A stretch of DNA of 64,000 nucleotides from Parasutterella secunda (GTDB lineage: Bacteria > Pseudomonadota > Gammaproteobacteria > Burkholderiales > Burkholderiaceae_F), in assembly GCF_016901835.1 (NCBI RefSeq), contig NZ_JACJKX010000001.1, positions 1-64,000 on the forward strand, given 5' to 3'. Shown piece by piece: positions 37,920 to 57,092 of the stretch. The notes below the pieces were generated by a model. It was not told the origin of the DNA, searched no databases, and saw nothing but the letters and a program-made list of their open reading frames with translations. A program made the position numbers and the translations under genes. Within the stretch, counting starts at the first letter, position 1; every line of letters starts with the position of its first letter.

Positions 37920-38873
37920 TCAAAACCGATAGTTAGCCGAGCAGGAAATGTTGGTACTGCTCCGGTACTCCTGACCGAAGTTTTTTTCCGCTTGCAAGGA
38001 AGCACTGACACGTTCATCGAGTTGATAATCGGCCCCTAACTTTGCTCGCCCCCATGTATCAAAAAGCGTATCGGAAAAACGTTGCTGCTTACCCAATGTG
38101 CGATACTTTCCGGACACTTGCCCGGAAAAATCCCGATAATAACCCAAGACAAAATAGGCTTGAGTGTCTCGGTTAAAACTCTTTTCTCCTCTCAATTTAA
38201 GAGCCAAAACTAAATTTTCTATTGGTTGGTAACGAATATCGCTTCGATCTGCCCGCAAAGTCTCTGAACTCAATCGGCTGTATGTCAACCGAATTTGGGG
38301 ATCAACAATAGTGGACTGGCTGGGTTTCCATCGATGTCCATATTCAGCACCGAGGTAGATACCGGATAGATTTTCATTTTCTTTTTGACCTTCAAGCAAG
38401 GCCCTAAGTCGCATCATTCCCACTTTAATCAGTGCACCGAAATACGAACCATCAGAGTAACCGTATGTTCCGTATACGCTTGCTCCCATTGTTTCGCTCT
38501 CTGAGGATCCTTGACTGTAGTAGGACGAGCCTTTTCCGAAGTCTATTGTTGAGCCGACGGTCAACTGACTATTTAGCGCCAAATCAGATCCCAACAAAAT
38601 GAACTGATGATCACAACTGGCTTGTCCAATATTCCAACTCTGATACTGACCGACAGACCATCGGCCGGTTGTTTGCTTTCCTTCCCGAACGTTGTCCATT
38701 CGCTCATACAAATGGCGCATGCCGCTTCTGCGCCATGTCACCGAATTGGAAAGAGCAAGTTGTTTGGCGCTTGTCAGATCATTGGCATTTTCCGTCACTG
38801 ACGTACTCGATAAAGCTTGAGTGCACAGCAACGACAAAACCACAGAAAAAAGCGCCCGCACCACATTTCTCAT
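37920..38873 (-). CDS. Autotransporter-type outer-membrane beta-barrel with no real passenger
   Basis: 317 aa. Signal peptide about 1-22 (LLCTQALSS), then roughly 30 residues, then what looks like an autotransporter translocator domain: an alpha-helical lead (RRSGMRHLYERMDNVREG), GRWSVGQYQSWNIG, and a series of amphipathic strands ending SCSANYRF with a terminal Phe for BAM recognition. Ordinary autotransporters carry passengers of several hundred residues; here almost nothing precedes the barrel. The start is 2 nt after the priA stop, so it is probably on the priA transcript. It may be a passenger-less remnant, or a barrel with its own function. Family call moderate. Confidence 0.7.
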   Translation of the reverse strand: MRNVVRALFSVVLSLLCTQALSSTSVTENANDLTSAKQLALSNSVTWRRSGMRHLYERMDNVREGKQTTGRWSVGQYQSWNIGQASCDHQFILLGSDLALNSQLTVGSTIDFGKGSSYYSQGSSESETMGASVYGTYGYSDGSYFGALIKVGMMRLRALLEGQKENENLSGIYLGAEYGHRWKPSQSTIVDPQIRLTYSRLSSETLRADRSDIRYQPIENLVLALKLRGEKSFNRDTQAYFVLGYYRDFSGQVSGKYRTLGKQQRFSDTLFDTWGRAKLGADYQLDERVSASLQAEKNFGQEYRSSTNISCSANYRF

Positions 38874-40903: not shown

Positions 40904-41259
40904 TAAAAAATCCTAAAAAAGTACGCGTCTCATTGTATCTGATCAAACACGTCTGCATTGTATTTCAAACGCAAATATCCTCTTCGGATCGAGTGGATAA
41001 GTGATTGGGTTTGAAACTCCATTATTTTCAAACGATTAGCCTAAAAATGTGAATCATTGTGGATAACTTTGTGGATAATCCTCGTTCTGTCTACTTTTTA
41101 AGCAAAACCCTCTGATTCATAAATAACTTGCTGAAATCAGAGGGTTTTTAAGCTTTTCTTTATAAATCAATAGGTTACAAAGTTCACATTCATGTAACCT
41201 TTTAATTTTCAACGATTTTTAGTTGTTCACCATTTATGTGGATAACTTTGGGGATAACG
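40904..41259. other. 356-bp intergenic region with DnaA-box cluster (candidate oriC or DnaA-regulated region)
   Basis: Holds no gene. Contains five DnaA boxes in one orientation: AGTGGATAA (40992-41000), TGTGGATAA at 41058-41066, 41070-41078 and 41237-41245, and TGGGGATAA (41249-41257). Three are exact complements of TTATCCACA. Boxes 2/3 and 4/5 are paired with the identical 3-nt spacer CTT, making near-exact 21-bp direct repeats. An IHF-consensus match AATCAATAGGTTA lies at 41165-41177, in an AT-rich stretch, with a 7-bp hairpin GGTTACA/TGTAACC (41173-41199). A 14-bp terminator for hemE sits in the middle. Together these are the ingredients of a chromosomal origin, or of strong DnaA control of priA. 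Confidence 0.6.
41104..41148 (-). terminator. Terminator of hemE
   Basis: A perfect 14-bp inverted repeat AAAACCCTCTGATT (41104-41117) / AATCAGAGGGTTTT (41135-41148) with a 17-nt loop, T-runs on both sides. On the minus strand it follows the hemE stop by about 110 nt. Confidence 0.85.
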
Positions 41260-42333
41260 TTAGGCCTTATGGAAGGCCGGGCTGTATCGGTGAACCTCAT
41301 CGACCAATATTTCAACCGCTTCAGGCGGAGTAAATTGGTTAATTCCATGTCCGAGGTTAAACACATGACCTCCACCGTGCACAACTCCAAAATCCTCAAT
41401 GACACGTCGTACCTCTTGGCGGATCCTGTCTTCACTTCCGAAAAGAACCATGGGATCCAGGTTCCCCTGTAATGCCACACTGTCCTTGACGCGACGTCGG
41501 GCTTGCGACAAATTGCTAGTCCAATCAAGCCCTACAGCATCGGTTCCGCATGTTGCGATGGACTCCAGCCACTGACCACCGCCTTTCGTGAAAACGATCA
41601 CCGGAATGCGCTCACCATCATACGTTTTATGCAAACCATCAATGATCTTTTGCATATAAGCCAGAGAGAACTCCTTAAAAGACGATTCGGATAAAGTTCC
41701 TCCCCAAGTATCAAAAATCTGTACTGCTTGGGCTCCGGCTTCAATTTGTGCGTTAAGATAGGCTGTGACACTTTTTGCATTCACATCCAAAATCCTGTGC
41801 AACAAGTCAGGCCGTGTGTACATCATCGTCTTAATCGTACGATAATCTTTACTGGATCCCCCTTCGACCATATAGCAGGCAAGAGTAAAAGGGCTGCCGG
41901 AAAATCCAATTAAGGGGACTTTATTATGTAGCGCCTGTCGAATACAGCAAACTGCATCGGTCACATAACGCAGACTCGTTTCAATATTCGGTACTTTCAG
42001 AGCATTCACATCATCTTCATTTTTAACAGGTCGGGCAAATTTGGGGCCTTCGCCTGCAACAAAAGATAATTCTAGACCCATCGCATCAGGCACCGTCAAT
42101 ATATCCGAAAACAAAATGGCCGCGTCCAATCCGAAACGTTCCACCGGCTGCAAGGTGACTTCACAGGCCAATGCCGGTGATTGGGCGAGCTTCATAAAAC
42201 TGCCCGCTTTGGATCTTGTTGCGTTATATTCAGCCAGATAACGTCCGGCTTGTCTCATCAACCAAACTGGCGTGTATTCACACTTCTGGCGCAAAAGCGC
42301 TTTCAAAAACGTATCATTATCTGGTCTCATCAT
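41260..42333 (-). CDS. hemE: Uroporphyrinogen decarboxylase
   Basis: Decarboxylates uroporphyrinogen III to coproporphyrinogen III in haem synthesis. 357 aa with the substrate-binding N-terminal signature [16 protein letters not shown] (about 21-36), [13 protein letters not shown] with the catalytic Asp (about 80), [17 protein letters not shown] and [16 protein letters not shown] near the end. Divergent from the DUF167 gene with 15 nt between starts, so each promoter overlaps the other's coding sequence. Confidence 0.98.
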
Positions 42334-51357: not shown

Positions 51358-52149
51358 CTATTTCTCCTTGCTTTGCTTCTTGTACTTTTTCATACGTTTC
51401 AAGAATTCTGCACCGAACTCCTGATAGGCTTTGGCACCTTTACTGGACTTATCGTACAAGACACCGGGCAAGCCATAACTCGGTGCCTCTGCCAGGCGTA
51501 CGTTTCTAGGAATAACCGTCTTAAAGACTTTATCTCCAAAGTACTCTTTTAATTGCTCACTCACTTGTTGTTGCAACGTGACTCGCGGGTCAAACATCAC
51601 TCGGAGCAAACCGATTAACGTCAGATCCGGATTCTTAGCAGCCTGAATTCGCTTAACTGATCCGATTAAATCGGTCAAACCTTCCATTGCAAAGTACTCA
51701 CATTGCATCGGGACAATAACCCCACGAGCAGAACACAAAGCGTTGATGGTCAACATGGAAAGAGAGGGCGGACAGTCAATAATTACAAAATCGTAATTAT
51801 CATTTTGTTCTTTCAGAATATTTTTAAGTCGTTCGTCTCTATCTTCAAGCTGTACTAACTCAACCTCAGCACCGGCTAATTCTCGATTTGCAGGAAGAAT
51901 ATCGTAACCGGCATCTTCCGAATGAATAACCACTTTCTCAAACGACGCTTGTCCGAACAGCAAAGGGTAAACCGTCTCGGTTATCGAATCTTTGCTGACA
52001 CCGCTACCGGTTGTAGCATTGCCCTGAGGATCAAGGTCAATCAGCAAGACACGTTGTTTTAAACCGGACAACGCAGACGACAAATTCACAGCGGTCGTTG
52101 TTTTGCCCACTCCGCCTTTTTGATTTGCCACACAAAATGTTAAAGCCAT
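51358..52149 (-). CDS. parA: Chromosome partitioning ATPase ParA (Soj)
   Basis: 263 aa. Deviant Walker A QKGGVGKTTTAVNLS (about 9-22), switch I region DPQGNATTG, Walker B-like VIIDCPPSLSML. Lacks the N-terminal DNA-binding extension of plasmid ParA, consistent with a chromosomal type. Drives origin segregation with ParB. Confidence 0.97.
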   Translation of the reverse strand: MALTFCVANQKGGVGKTTTAVNLSSALSGLKQRVLLIDLDPQGNATTGSGVSKDSITETVYPLLFGQASFEKVVIHSEDAGYDILPANRELAGAEVELVQLEDRDERLKNILKEQNDNYDFVIIDCPPSLSMLTINALCSARGVIVPMQCEYFAMEGLTDLIGSVKRIQAAKNPDLTLIGLLRVMFDPRVTLQQQVSEQLKEYFGDKVFKTVIPRNVRLAEAPSYGLPGVLYDKSSKGAKAYQEFGAEFLKRMKKYKKQSKEK

Positions 52150-52159
52150 TTTCTAACCC

Positions 52160-52816
52160 TTACATCTTAGGCATTGAAAGCCATAATTCTGAAAAACCTT
52201 GCCAAAAAATTGAAATACCGATACACAATAAAATAAATGCGAAAACCCTAGACAAGGCATCAGCACCCGTTGCGCCAACTGCTTGACTCACACGATCGCA
52301 GTATCGATAACAAACATAAACAGTCAATAAAGTAGCAACTGTTGCCAAAAGACATCCAATAAGATTGGCCGTTCCGTGACCAATCATACCCGTACCGATA
52401 GCAGTCGAAACAGCAATCATTCCCGGTCCCATTGTCAACGGCAGCGTAATGGGATAGAAGGCCATCGATAATAATTTTTTCCTAGATTTTGGCGGTTCAA
52501 TAGTCGAATTCTCGGTATCGTCATGTGTAGCTTCGTTTAAAGCCTTCCATCCTGCAGAAATCAGTACCAAACCACCACCAACTCTGAGAACTCCCATAGA
52601 TATCCCAAAGAAACTCAAAATCAGATGACCAGCAAACAAGCTGACCAACATAATAATCATCGAGTAGAAGACTATTCGATTAACCATCATCTTTCTGGTC
52701 TCTTGGTCAATATTCGGCGTTAAAGCCAGAAAAAACATTGCCCCACCAAAAGGATTCAAGACCGGTATAAAAGACGCGAAAGCAAATAAAAATGTACTTA
52801 CTACTTGATCAAGCAC
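52160..52816 (-). CDS. MarC family (UPF0056) membrane protein, second copy
   Basis: About 218 aa, six helices. FASFIPVLNPFGGAMFFLALT, FFGISMGVLRVGGGLVLISAG and FYPITLPLTMGPGMIAVSTAIG are family signatures. I start at GTG 52816, which has GCGAGG 7 nt upstream; the ORF extends 36 nt further but without a site. Function unknown. Ends 10 nt before parA, so it could be the first gene of a marC-parA-parB transcript. Confidence 0.85.
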   Translation of the reverse strand: MLDQVVSTFLFAFASFIPVLNPFGGAMFFLALTPNIDQETRKMMVNRIVFYSMIIMLVSLFAGHLILSFFGISMGVLRVGGGLVLISAGWKALNEATHDDTENSTIEPPKSRKKLLSMAFYPITLPLTMGPGMIAVSTAIGTGMIGHGTANLIGCLLATVATLLTVYVCYRYCDRVSQAVGATGADALSRVFAFILLCIGISIFWQGFSELWLSMPKM

Positions 52817-53102
52817 ATTAACCTCGCAAGAAAATAAGACCAAGACAAGCAAAATGCATTTTTACATAACTAAATAAAAAAATCTTTAAAACCAAAAACA
52901 CTTTACAAAATATTGTTCCATGTGAAACATATTATATGTGTTATATTTTAAATAAATAATTTATTTGCTTAATTTTTAGGCATATAATATAAATATAAAT
53001 GATTTTTTTATAACGATATCTAATTGATATATATGCGTTTTGTCAATTTTTTGCTTATTTTTTATGCATTTTAATTTTAGGCGATAAGGTGCATATGTGT
53101 AA
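52817..53102. other. AT-rich intergenic region with a parS-like site
   Basis: 286 bp between rsmG and the MarC gene, mostly A and T with runs such as ATATAATATAAATATAAATG. Contains one parS-like 16-mer near 52914. Must hold the promoter for the MarC-parAB genes; several TATA-like -10 candidates exist but none with a clear -35. No gene seen. Confidence 0.6.
52914..52929. other. parS-like site 1
   Basis: TGTTCCATGTGAAACA matches the bacterial parS consensus TGTTTCACGTGAAACA at 14 of 16 positions (mismatches at 5 and 8). Intergenic, 1.6 kb from the parB start. Confidence 0.7.
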
Positions 53103-53744
53103 TTATTGATTGAAAATCACAACAATATTCCTATCTTCATTTAAAAATGGTACAGAAATCTGCACAATCTCGGTTCTGAATGAATCTCTAATAGAATTGA
53201 TTTCATCAACTGGCACCTGTCCTTTTAAAGCAACCCAACAGCCTTCTGGTTTTATTAGATGCGATGATAAATTAATAAAATTTTCAAGTGAAGAAAAGGC
53301 TCTGGAAGAAATAACATCAAAACTCAAATTCTTAAGATTTTCGACACGTGAGTTGAATACTTTAACATTTTTCAACTTTAAGGAAAGAGCAACCTGCGTT
53401 AAAAATGCAGTTTTCTTTCCAACCGTTTCAACAAGAGAAACTGAGACATCAGGGCATGCTATAGCTAAAGGTATAGCAGGAAGCCCACCACCCGAACCAA
53501 CATCCAGGACTTTTGCTCCTTCAAAAACATAGCGTTTAAAAATTGGGACAGCTGCCAAAGAATCGAGTATATGATGAGTTAAAACGTCATCGTTATTTGT
53601 AATTGAGGTTAAATTGTAGGTTTTATTCCATTTATAAAGCAATGCTGAATAAGCATCAATCATTTGAATTTGTTCATTACTTAAAACAATATCCAAACAT
53701 TTGATACCTTCTAATAAGCGAACTTTATTTAAAAAACCTTGCAT
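53103..53744 (-). CDS. rsmG: 16S rRNA (guanine-527-N7)-methyltransferase
   Basis: 213 aa. SAM-binding VLDVGSGGGLPAIPLAIA (about 71-88), VETVGKKTAFLTQ, and an N-terminal helix with YSALLYKWNKTYNLTSI; modifies helix 18 of 16S rRNA. Strikingly AT-rich compared with genes on either side. One nt downstream of mnmG. Confidence 0.96.
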   Translation of the reverse strand: MQGFLNKVRLLEGIKCLDIVLSNEQIQMIDAYSALLYKWNKTYNLTSITNNDDVLTHHILDSLAAVPIFKRYVFEGAKVLDVGSGGGLPAIPLAIACPDVSVSLVETVGKKTAFLTQVALSLKLKNVKVFNSRVENLKNLSFDVISSRAFSSLENFINLSSHLIKPEGCWVALKGQVPVDEINSIRDSFRTEIVQISVPFLNEDRNIVVIFNQ

Positions 53745-53745
53745 T

Positions 53746-55647
53746 TTATTTACTGTACTTTCGAGATTTTATAAAAATTAATAAAAGACTAATTGCCGCA
53801 GGTGTAACCCCACTAATTCTTCCGGCTTGACCTAACGTTTCAGGTCTATGAGCTTTTAACTTTTGACGCACTTCAAACGAAAGACCTTTAACCTTGTCAT
53901 AATCAAAATCAGAAGGAATACGTGTAGTTTCATGTTCAATGAGTTTAGAAACTTCTTCCTTCTGACGATTTATATAGCCAGAGTATTTGGCTGTAATTTC
54001 AAGCTGTTCAATCTCGGATGAAGTTAAATTAACGTTCTCTGATACCAATTTTTCATCTTTATTCTTTAATGTCATCAATGTTTCATGTGAAACATTAGGT
54101 CTGGACAAAAGATTAAAAAGTGAATACTCACGTTCAATGTTACTACCCAAGACTCTCTGTGCTTCTTGATCAGAAATCAACCCAGGATAAATCCAAGTTG
54201 TCTTAAGCCTATTCAATTCTTTAGCAATCGCATCACGTTTTCTAATAAAGAAATCCCAACGTTCATCATTAACCAAACCTAACTTTCTACCAATTTCAGT
54301 CAGGCGATCATCAGCATTATCTTCTCTGAGACTCAACCTGTATTCAGCTCGAGAAGTAAACATACGATAAGGCTCAGTTACACCCTTCGTTATTAAATCA
54401 TCAACCATGACACCTAAATAAGCTTGGTCTCTTCGTGGAGTCCAAGGTTCCTTACCTTTTACTTTCAATGCCGCATTCAAACCAGCTAATAGACCTTGAG
54501 CCGCAGCTTCTTCATACCCAGTAGTACCATTTATTTGGCCAGCAAAAAACAATCCCTCAATTTGCTTTGTTTCCAAACTTGTTTTCAGTTCTCTTGGATC
54601 ATAATAATCGTACTCGATAGCATATGCCGGTCTAATAAAATGAGCATTTTCAAGTCCGGGAATGGTATGCATAAATGCAATCTGAACATCAAACGGCAAA
54701 CTCGAAGAAATCCCGTTAGGATAATAAACGTGTGTATTTAACCCTTCAGGCTCTAAAAATACATGATGTGAATTTTTATCAGCAAACCTGACAACTTTAT
54801 CTTCAATTGAAGGACAGTATCGAGGACCAATACCTTCAATAATTCCAGAGAACATCGGAGAGCGATCTAAATTAGCTCTAATAATATCGTGAGTTTGCGT
54901 ATTGGTATTTGTAATCCAACAAGGAACTTGTTCTGGATGTTGGATTTGCGGTTCTAACAAAGAAAAACTCGGAATCGGATCAAAATCACCTAATTGTTTT
55001 TCACATTTTTCAAAATCAATCGTTCGACCATCGATTCTTGCAGGAGTGCCAGTCTTTAATCTACCCTTCGGGAGTCCCAAATCAATCAATCTCTGCGCTA
55101 ACTTAATACTAGCCGGATCCCCTACTCGACCAGCCGGATAATGTTCTAACCCTACATGGATTAACCCGTGTAAAAAGGTCCCCGCTGTAATAATCACGGT
55201 TTGTGAATAGATTTTTACATTGGTTTGAGTGATAACACCAGCAACCCTTCCACCTTCTACAATTAAATCATCCACCCCTTGTTGGAATACCCATAAATTT
55301 TCTTGTTCCTCAATTCTCTTTCTCATTGCCACTCGATACAATTCTCTGTCAATCTGAGCGCGAGTTGCACGAACGGCTGGTCCTTTAGATCCATTAAGCA
55401 CCCTAAACTGAATTCCGGACTCGTCGGTTACTTGGGCCATAGCCCCACCCATAGCATCCAACTCTTTCACTAAGTGACTTTTACCAATTCCACCAATTGA
55501 CGGATTACAAGATAGTTGGCCGATAGTCTCTATATTATGCGTAATCAATAAAGTTTTACATCCCATCCTTGCAGCAGCTAGACAAGCCTCTGCCCCAGCA
55601 TGACCACAACCAACTACGATTACATCATAACGAACCGGATAATCCAT
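53746..55647 (-). CDS. mnmG: tRNA uridine-5-carboxymethylaminomethyl modification enzyme MnmG
   Basis: 633 aa FAD/NADH enzyme that, with MnmE, modifies the wobble uridine of several tRNAs. FAD motif [21 protein letters not shown] (about 9-29, quoted in part), [33 protein letters not shown]-like [12 protein letters not shown]-terminal helical MnmE-binding domain. AT-rich coding region containing a parS-like site at 54079-54094; a further site lies just upstream of its start. Confidence 0.98.
54079..54094. other. parS-like site 2 inside mnmG
   Basis: TGTTTCATGTGAAACA matches the parS consensus at 15 of 16 positions (C to T at position 8). Lies in the C-terminal coding part of mnmG, encoding part of NVSHETLM. 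Confidence 0.8.
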
Positions 55648-55655
55648 TTTTTCCT

Positions 55656-55671
55656 CGTTCCACGTGAAACA
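55656..55671. other. parS-like site 3 upstream of mnmG
   Basis: CGTTCCACGTGAAACA matches the parS consensus at 14 of 16 (mismatches at 1 and 5), with the perfect central CCACGTGAAAC core. It lies 8 nt before the mnmG start codon, overlapping the likely ribosome binding region. Confidence 0.75.
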
Positions 55672-55706
55672 ATAGTCTATTTTTATATTTTATTCTTTAA
55701 AATCAA

Positions 55707-57092
55707 TTACTTACCAATACAAAAACGACTAAAAATCATTCCTAAAATATCATCAGGGGTCGTTTCTCCAACAATTTGCCCCAACTCTTCATTGCAGAGC
55801 CTTAATTCTTCAGCTAACAGATCCAAAGGAGGCTCTGGATAATTGACAAAGTTTTCAGCCAACTTTAAATGTTCATAAGCCTTTGACAACGCCTCTAAAT
55901 GTCTTTGTCTAGCTAGGAATGTTGACTCAGGTTTATTCTCCCACCCTACTAGTTCTAACAGTTTCTTTTCCAGAGCTTCTATACCCATCCCCGTTTTAGC
56001 TGAAATAGTTATCCAGTTAGGGTTGGGTATTGATGTACTCCCTAAGTCACATTTATTTAGAACATGCAGAACCGGAACACCGGCTGAAACTCGTTGCATC
56101 ACTTTTTCTAAGATTTTTTGGCCTTCTTCATCTGAACTCTGATGCGTAGAATCAATCAAATGCAGCACAATATCGGCATTTTCGACTGCCTGCAGAGTTC
56201 TTTCAATACCAATACTCTCAACCTTGTCCTGAGTTTCACGGACACCGGCTGTATCGACCAAACGCAACGCCACACCACCGATACTGATTTCATTTTCAAT
56301 TTTGTCGCGAGTGGTTCCTGCTACATCAGTAACAATAGCGACTTCCGTTCCACTTAACCGATTCATTAGGGACGATTTTCCAACATTAGGGCTTCCTACT
56401 AAGACAACAGTTACCCCCTCCCTTAAAATAGATCCTTGCTGGGATTGATGTTTCAGTCGTTCAAAATCGTCCACAATTTTGTGCATTCTTTCTCGCGCCT
56501 GAGTACTCTGAATGAAGTCAATTTCTTCCTCAGGAAAATCTAAAATCGCTTCTATTAATGCACGTAACTCTATGACTTGATCACCTATTTCATGAACGCT
56601 GTCGGAGAATTCTCCGTTCAGAGAACGTGAAGCAGCCCTGACTGCCCCTTCTGTCGTAGCATCAATTAAATCCGCCACAGCTTCGGCTTGTGACAAATCA
56701 AGCCTGCCGTTCAAAAAGGCCCTTTTAGTGAATTCGCCGGGCTCGGCTAATCTCAATCCACTCGATCTCCCTACTTCCAAAACACGGCGCAAAAGCATCT
56801 GCAATACAACCGGCCCGCCGTGGGCTTGTAATTCAAGCACTGACTCCCCGGTATAGGATCTGGGGGTAGGAAAATAAAGGGCCAATCCTTCATCTATCAA
56901 ACTGCCGCATTCGTCTTTGAAAGGGCGATAGTGAGCATATCTTGGCTTCAGACATTCTGTCGGGCCAAAAAATTTTTCTATAAAAGTCTTTATAAAGCTA
57001 TCTTCGCCCGATAAGCGAATGATCCCCACCCCTCCCCTACCGGAGGCTGTAGCAATCGCCACAATTGGATCTCTATCAGAATTAATGGCCAT
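55707..57092 (-). CDS. mnmE: tRNA modification GTPase MnmE
   Basis: 461 aa. N-terminal tetrahydrofolate-binding domain (IATASGRGGVGIIRLSG), helical domain, inserted G domain with G1 GSPNVGKSSLMNRL (about 232), G3 DTAG in RLVDTAGVRET and G4 NKCD; C-terminal FCIGK with the conserved Cys. Partner of MnmG, with a 59-nt gap containing parS site 3. Confidence 0.98.
   Translation of the reverse strand: MAINSDRDPIVAIATASGRGGVGIIRLSGEDSFIKTFIEKFFGPTECLKPRYAHYRPFKDECGSLIDEGLALYFPTPRSYTGESVLELQAHGGPVVLQMLLRRVLEVGRSSGLRLAEPGEFTKRAFLNGRLDLSQAEAVADLIDATTEGAVRAASRSLNGEFSDSVHEIGDQVIELRALIEAILDFPEEEIDFIQSTQARERMHKIVDDFERLKHQSQQGSILREGVTVVLVGSPNVGKSSLMNRLSGTEVAIVTDVAGTTRDKIENEISIGGVALRLVDTAGVRETQDKVESIGIERTLQAVENADIVLHLIDSTHQSSDEEGQKILEKVMQRVSAGVPVLHVLNKCDLGSTSIPNPNWITISAKTGMGIEALEKKLLELVGWENKPESTFLARQRHLEALSKAYEHLKLAENFVNYPEPPLDLLAEELRLCNEELGQIVGETTPDDILGMIFSRFCIGK

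What the first reader, a model, noticed from the sequence alone, without database searches (positions are those of the whole stretch)
40992..41257. Cluster of five DnaA boxes with an IHF-like site between priA and hemE, 20 kb from dnaA
Seen: five same-orientation 9-mers within 266 bp, three identical to TGTGGATAA and two with one mismatch. Two pairs share the same CTT spacer, forming near-exact 21-bp direct repeats. An exact IHF consensus (AATCAATAGGTTA) and AT-rich DNA sit between the pairs. This is denser than the rpmH-dnaA gap, which has one perfect box. Known: E. coli's origin lies away from dnaA and between co-oriented genes, so such a site can be the origin. Inference: this may be the true oriC, a second DnaA-titrating or DnaA-reactivating locus, or a DnaA-controlled promoter region of priA. 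Against the origin reading: transcription does not diverge here, while it does at dnaA.
Basis: partly seen in the sequence, partly recalled or inferred. Interest (0 to 1): 0.62.

Follow-up and report, generated by a model that had tools for sequence, protein, structure and literature searches.

The report
Off-origin DnaA–IHF control site (datA-like)
Between two housekeeping genes lies a stretch of non-coding DNA whose binding sites for the replication starter DnaA and the DNA-bending protein IHF are spaced almost exactly as in E. coli's DnaA-switch site datA; the layout recurs in many beta- and gammaproteobacteria, so it is probably a replication-timing switch and not the replication origin.

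Summary
Five same-strand DnaA boxes and an exact IHF site lie in the hemE–priA gap, and this is the only such double pair in the genome. It is not oriC. GC skew turns at 60.4–61.7 kb, next to dnaA. A denser box cluster, conserved in the genus and likely the real oriC, lies just outside the window at C1:67.05–67.59 kb. In one complete relative the same element sits about 1.55 Mb from the skew minimum.

The element is an IHF-centred array with fixed spacing: box A, IHF 68 or 78 bp on, box III 96–99 bp further, box II 12 bp later, and often an inverted box I 14 bp after II. It recurs across the order and in other Gammaproteobacteria, mostly upstream of priA but also at unrelated loci. The reversed control pattern gave no match in about 1,000 genomes. 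In the window's genus, box order, orientation and spacing (12/68/99) match the essential parts of E. coli datA (12/65/97). In many relatives the right end is a DARS-type core.

Best reading: an off-origin DnaA-regulating element of the datA/DARS class, most datA-like here. Function is inferred, not shown. New variant of a known kind.

The parts
41249..41257 (-). DnaA box TTATCCCCA (one mismatch), 12 bp upstream of box A; at the place of E. coli datA box 7
   Evidence: a box (up to two mismatches) at this place in 7 of 7 genus members
41237..41245 (-). DnaA box A, TTATCCACA; at the place of E. coli datA box 2
41223..41231 (+). weak inverted box TTGTTCACC (two mismatches), 14 bp after box A; tentative
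   Evidence: three mismatches over the paired motif
41165..41177 (-). IHF site, TAACCTATTGATT read on the minus strand; 68 bp after the start of box A and 99 bp before box III
   Evidence: 12 of 13 letters equal to the E. coli datA IHF site
41104..41148 (-). stem-loop AAAACCCTCTGATT...AATCAGAGGGTTTT, probably the hemE terminator, inside the array
   Evidence: similar stem-loop at the same place in four other genus members
41070..41078 (-). DnaA box III, TTATCCACA; at the place of E. coli datA box 3
41058..41066 (-). DnaA box II, TTATCCACA, 12 bp after box III; the most conserved box of the family
40992..41000 (-). DnaA-like box TTATCCACT; not conserved in the genus, probably outside the element
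41260..42333 (-). hemE, ends 3 bp before the first box
   Evidence: TIGR01464
38876..40903 (-). priA, downstream of the element
   Evidence: TIGR00595 and NF004067

Best explanation
The hemE-priA gap carries an off-origin, cis-acting DnaA control element of the datA/DARS class. Shown: an IHF site flanked at fixed distances by same-strand DnaA boxes, conserved across the order and in other Gammaproteobacteria, independent of gene neighbourhood and not at the origin. Inferred: IHF bends the DNA sharply, so that DnaA on the left pair (41237-41257) meets DnaA on the right pair (41058-41078). In this genus the parts present are those that E. coli datA needs (box 7, box 2, IHF site, box 3), so the likeliest outcome is stimulated hydrolysis of DnaA-bound ATP. 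The site is copied soon after initiation and would help to prevent re-initiation. Transcription of hemE through the IHF site may switch IHF binding, as read-through does at E. coli datA. I put the class reading (datA/DARS-type, in any mode) at about 0.85 and the datA mode at about 0.5.
For: Order, orientation and spacing equal to the datA core within 3 bp (12/68/99 against 12/65/97) and IHF site 12 of 13 letters equal. Published: boxes 2, 3, 7 and the IHF site are essential for datA and their spacing matters (PMC10950094, PMC10380432, PMC5835720). Array in 7 of 7 genus members. Matches in 58 of 250, 66 of 369 and 27 of 398 genomes with none for the reversed pattern. Spacing peaks appear without range settings, and A-to-IHF distances are grouped one helical turn apart. 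Copies at loci without priA. Not at the origin. IHF-alpha gene present and DnaA keeps ATP-site, arginine-finger, sensor-2 and box-reading residues.
Against: No activity has been measured. E. coli datA has no box II and has an inverted box 12 bp after box 3. In G040 the element lies far from the origin, where early copying could not serve a datA role, although that copy has a DARS-type inverted box. Many relatives carry a DARS-type core, so the ancestral role may be reactivation. The identity of TTGTAAACA as E. coli box 7 is my inference from its description.
Confidence: 0.55

Rival explanations
1. A DARS2-like reactivation site: ADP-DnaA on the core boxes exchanges ADP for ATP with help from IHF.
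For: Right end III-12-II as in the E. coli DARS core; the full III-II-inverted I core in 25 of 30 copies outside the order and 17 of 64 in other families of the order. IHF lies on the same side of the core as in DARS2.
Against: Inverted box I, which pairs head-to-head with box II in DARS (PMC8682772), is absent in 7 of 7 genus members and 14 of 14 other members of the family. DARS2 has no box A, and its IHF-III distance is 87 and not 99 bp.
Confidence: 0.2
2. A passive titration site: high-affinity boxes near the origin soak up DnaA, with no change of its nucleotide.
For: Three perfect boxes in close pairs, near the origin in this genome.
Against: Titration alone does not need fixed spacing, one orientation or an IHF site; these are what is conserved.
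Confidence: 0.15
3. A DnaA-controlled promoter region of priA.
For: Most copies in the order lie just upstream of priA (23 of 30 between hemE and priA, two more upstream of priA).
Against: Box II to priA distance varies from 75 to about 500 bp over 53 loci; five of 30 copies in the order and 16 of 27 outside it have no priA within the fetched flank; no promoter excess.
Confidence: 0.07
4. The chromosomal origin oriC itself.
For: Boxes, an IHF site and AT-rich DNA occur together.
Against: Skew changepoint at 60.4-61.7 kb; 41 kb is worse by about 122 log-likelihood units. A denser conserved cluster lies at 67 kb. In G040 the skew minimum coincides with another box cluster 1.55 Mb away.
Confidence: 0.02

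Closest known systems
E. coli datA (DDAH locus, between glyY and queG)
   Same: Box 7-like, box 2, IHF site and box 3 in the same order and orientation; spacing 12/68/99 against 12/65/97; IHF site 12 of 13 letters equal; transcribed from an upstream gene.
   Different: Other gene neighbourhood; an additional box II 12 bp after box 3; no inverted box right after box 3; about 26 kb from the oriC candidate; activity untested.
E. coli DARS2 and DARS1
   Same: III-12-II pair; an IHF site upstream of III as in DARS2; relatives also have the inverted box I at 14 bp.
   Different: No inverted box I in this genus; box A beyond the IHF site is absent from DARS2; IHF-III distance 99 and not 87; Fis sites not sought.
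Bacterial oriC
   Same: Clustered DnaA boxes, an IHF site, AT-rich intergenic DNA.
   Different: Not at the skew turn; the better oriC candidate is at C1:67.05-67.59 kb.

Membership tests
datA (DDAH element) | Box 7, box 2, IHF site and box 3 in this order and orientation | tested here: met
   E. coli box 7 taken to be TTGTAAACA from its description
datA (DDAH element) | Spacing between the IHF site and the essential boxes | tested here: met
   68 and 99 bp against 65 and 97 bp
datA (DDAH element) | IHF-dependent stimulation of DnaA-ATP hydrolysis | not testable with these tools
   Needs a biochemical assay
datA (DDAH element) | Common descent with E. coli datA (same gene neighbourhood) | tested here: not met
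   hemE-priA here, glyY-queG in E. coli; descent neither shown nor excluded
DARS | Core boxes III and II, same orientation, 12 bp apart | tested here: met
DARS | Box I inverted, 14 bp after box II | tested here: not met
   AAAATGTGA at that place in the window; 0 of 7 in the genus
DARS | Stimulated ADP release from DnaA | not testable with these tools
   Needs a biochemical assay
oriC | Lies at the GC-skew minimum | tested here: not met
oriC | Peak of marker frequency in growing cells | not testable with these tools
   No reads available
priA regulatory region | Fixed relation of the boxes to the priA start | tested here: not met
   Distance 75 to about 500 bp over 53 loci; copies without priA

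The most novel reading that the evidence does not exclude
The A-IHF-III-II-I array is an ancestral composite DnaA switch of beta- and gammaproteobacteria that combines a datA half and a DARS half in one IHF-bent complex, able to inactivate and reactivate DnaA in turn. E. coli's separate datA and DARS2 would be descendants of it, and the window's genus would show one step of that split (box I lost, box 7 gained).
Probability: 0.15. Interest if true: 0.85.

Novelty: new variant of a known kind. Interest (0 to 1): 0.57.

Why it matters
datA and DARS are studied almost only in E. coli and its near kin. Reviews say that DARS-like sequences occur in many proteobacteria, but I found no report of a datA-type site outside that group in the papers held. 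A rigidly spaced DnaA-IHF array in betaproteobacteria and other gammaproteobacteria, mostly at one gene junction, gives a ready list of sites to test whether switching DnaA off and on by DNA elements outside the origin is general, and how datA and DARS arose. It also warns that box-counting origin finders can mistake such sites for oriC.

Tried and rejected
oriC reading: rejected by skew in the window's contig and in G040; G016 was useless because its skew is weak at 70% G+C, and G043's minimum is ambiguous. priA-promoter reading: weakened. A separate DARS core elsewhere in this genome: the only strong II-I match (C8:19718-19740) lies in a palindrome between convergent genes with no box III at -12, probably a terminator, so not counted. 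RNA reading: all Rfam matches lie far below the gathering scores and only reflect the hairpin. My first spacing histogram used search ranges that would by themselves create gaps; I repeated it without ranges and use that for the helical-turn claim. Hda: only sub-threshold matches, the best of them DnaA itself; a C17 match was not resolved. The primary datA and DARS papers (Kasho 2013 and 2017, Fujimitsu 2009) are not held, so I cannot exclude that a priA-linked DARS-like core is already listed there.

Full report
OBSERVATION. Minus-strand TTATCCACA occurs at 41058-41066, 41070-41078 and 41237-41245, with one-mismatch boxes at 40992-41000 and 41249-41257. The two pairs are a 21-bp direct repeat, 20 of 21 identical, starting 179 bp apart. 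An exact IHF consensus lies between them at 41165-41177. Boxes with up to one mismatch are not enriched in the window as a whole (18 against 15 expected), but five in 266 bp is improbable (Poisson p about 8e-9 by my arithmetic from that rate). The spaced pair occurs nowhere else in the 1.98-Mb genome. The gap lies between the end of hemE and the start of priA, both on the minus strand and both well supported, and is 33% G+C.

NOT THE ORIGIN. I joined stretches of the contig (280 kb) and computed the skew. The cumulative minimum is at 61.2 kb and the best changepoint at 60.4-61.7 kb; 41 kb is worse by about 122 and 67.3 kb by about 24 log-likelihood units (bases were treated as independent, so the units overstate). 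A genome-wide box scan shows a still denser cluster just outside the window, C1:67046-67589: four TTATCCACA and one TTATGCACA in AT-rich DNA. It is conserved about 6-8.6 kb downstream of the dnaA start in the five genus members whose dnaA contig could be read and is my oriC candidate. In the complete relative G040 the skew runs negative from 0 to 1.5 Mb and mostly positive from 1.7 Mb on. Its minimum near 1.699 Mb coincides with a box cluster at 1,695,210-1,695,391, while the hemE-priA element is at 0.143 Mb, about 1.55 Mb away.

A CONSERVED ARRAY. PriA-anchored loci from 60 relatives and 80 named genomes show that the boxes recur upstream of priA with fixed internal spacing. In the orientation of the boxes the plan is: box A; IHF site TAANNNNTTGATW in the same orientation; box III 96-99 bp after the IHF start; box II 12 bp later; in many lineages an inverted box I 14 bp after II. 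Anchoring on box II alone, with no range set for the others, TTGAT peaks at -102 to -104 and TTATNCACA at -12 and around -167, -176 and -187. Unrestricted A-to-IHF distances fall in groups at 56-57, 65-69, 74-80 and 88-89, about one helical turn apart. Spacers are not conserved; boxes, IHF site and the letters next to them are (the A, IHF and II letters were used for selection there, box III and the flanking letters were not). All seven genus members with the region have the array.

BREADTH AND CONTROL. A pattern with wide gaps matches 58 of 250 genomes of the order, 66 of 369 of the class (last box relaxed) and 27 of 398 of the phylum (only one of these outside the class). The reversed pattern matched no genome in any of the three scans. 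These are lower bounds, since many members with TTGTCCACA-type boxes miss the strict pattern. Of 30 loci from the order, 23 lie between hemE and priA, two upstream of priA only and five near neither; the last are next to tatD, earP, a class II tRNA-synthetase gene and others. Outside the order 11 of 27 loci have priA within 1.5 kb; others neighbour aroE, hemN, recR or a HerA-like gene. The distance from box II to priA varies from 75 to about 500 bp. The array is therefore a unit of its own and not a part of the priA promoter.

WHAT IT MATCHES. I read the E. coli loci directly. datA: TTGTAAACA -12- TTATCCACA -65- TAACCTATTGATA -97- TTATTCACA, then an inverted box. Window: TTATCCCCA -12- TTATCCACA -68- TAACCTATTGATT -99- TTATCCACA -12- TTATCCACA. 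Order and orientation agree, the spacing agrees within 3 bp, and the IHF sites agree in 12 of 13 letters. [quoted passage not shown]). The E. coli DARS core is III -12- II -14- inverted I, with IHF 87 bp before III in DARS2 (box assignment mine, in keeping with PMC8682772). The inverted box I, which played no part in selecting the loci, is present in 25 of 30 copies outside the order and 17 of 64 in other families of the order, but in 0 of 14 other members of the window's family and 0 of 7 of its genus. A box at the box-7 place is present in 7 of 7 of the genus and almost nowhere else. So the wider family is a composite of a datA-like left part and a DARS-like right part, and the window's genus has the datA set without DARS box I.

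MECHANISM (inferred). IHF bends the array so that DnaA on the left pair meets DnaA on the right pair. With the datA set present I expect hydrolysis of DnaA-bound ATP after initiation. The needed parts exist: an IHF-alpha gene over its cut-off and a DnaA that keeps the ATP-site, arginine-finger, sensor-2 and box-reading residues. hemE ends 3 bp before the first box, and a stem-loop, probably its terminator, lies between IHF and box III here and in four other genus members, so hemE transcription should cross the IHF site. At E. coli datA, read-through transcription dissociates IHF (PMC10950094); the same switch is possible here.

LIMITS. Nothing here shows activity. Reactivation (DARS mode) or mere titration remain possible for the window's copy. 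Shared architecture does not prove descent from one ancestor. Reviews state that sequences similar to DARS are conserved in many proteobacteria (PMC10380432, PMC5742627), so the right-hand half is not new in kind. What I did not find in the papers held is the composite array, its link to hemE-priA, or a datA-type site outside the kin of E. coli; the primary papers could not be read.

VERDICT. Real, conserved, not oriC: an off-origin DnaA-IHF control element of the datA/DARS class, most datA-like in this genus. New variant of a known kind.

Noticed in passing
G000 C1:67046-67589 (L033:7046-7589), 3 kb beyond the window's end: A denser DnaA-box cluster (four TTATCCACA, one TTATGCACA) with the same CTTTATAAATCAATARGTTA IHF module and a stem-loop, between a gene downstream of gyrB and a small lipoprotein-like gene; conserved in five genus members. 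Likely the real oriC, though the skew changepoint is about 6 kb away.
   Followed up: partly
G040 C1:1695210-1695391: In this complete relative the skew minimum and a dense box cluster lie about 0.41 Mb from dnaA, so its origin is not next to dnaA.
   Followed up: partly
G043 C1:5094463-5095123; L098, L122: The element is present in two tandem copies upstream of priA in some relatives.
   Followed up: no
41223-41231 and the same place in genus relatives: A weak inverted box 14 bp (or 24 bp where the left arm is one helical turn longer) after box A in the genus, so the left pair may itself resemble a DARS core.
   Followed up: partly
G000 C8:19718-19740 (L314): TTATCCACA-N5-TGTGAATAA inside a palindrome between convergent genes; looks like a terminator that happens to contain two DnaA boxes.
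   Followed up: partly
37920-38873: ORF directly downstream of priA matches an autotransporter outer-membrane beta-barrel domain.
   Followed up: no
52001-56000: G+C falls to 35-39% here, against 45-52% in most of the window.
   Followed up: no
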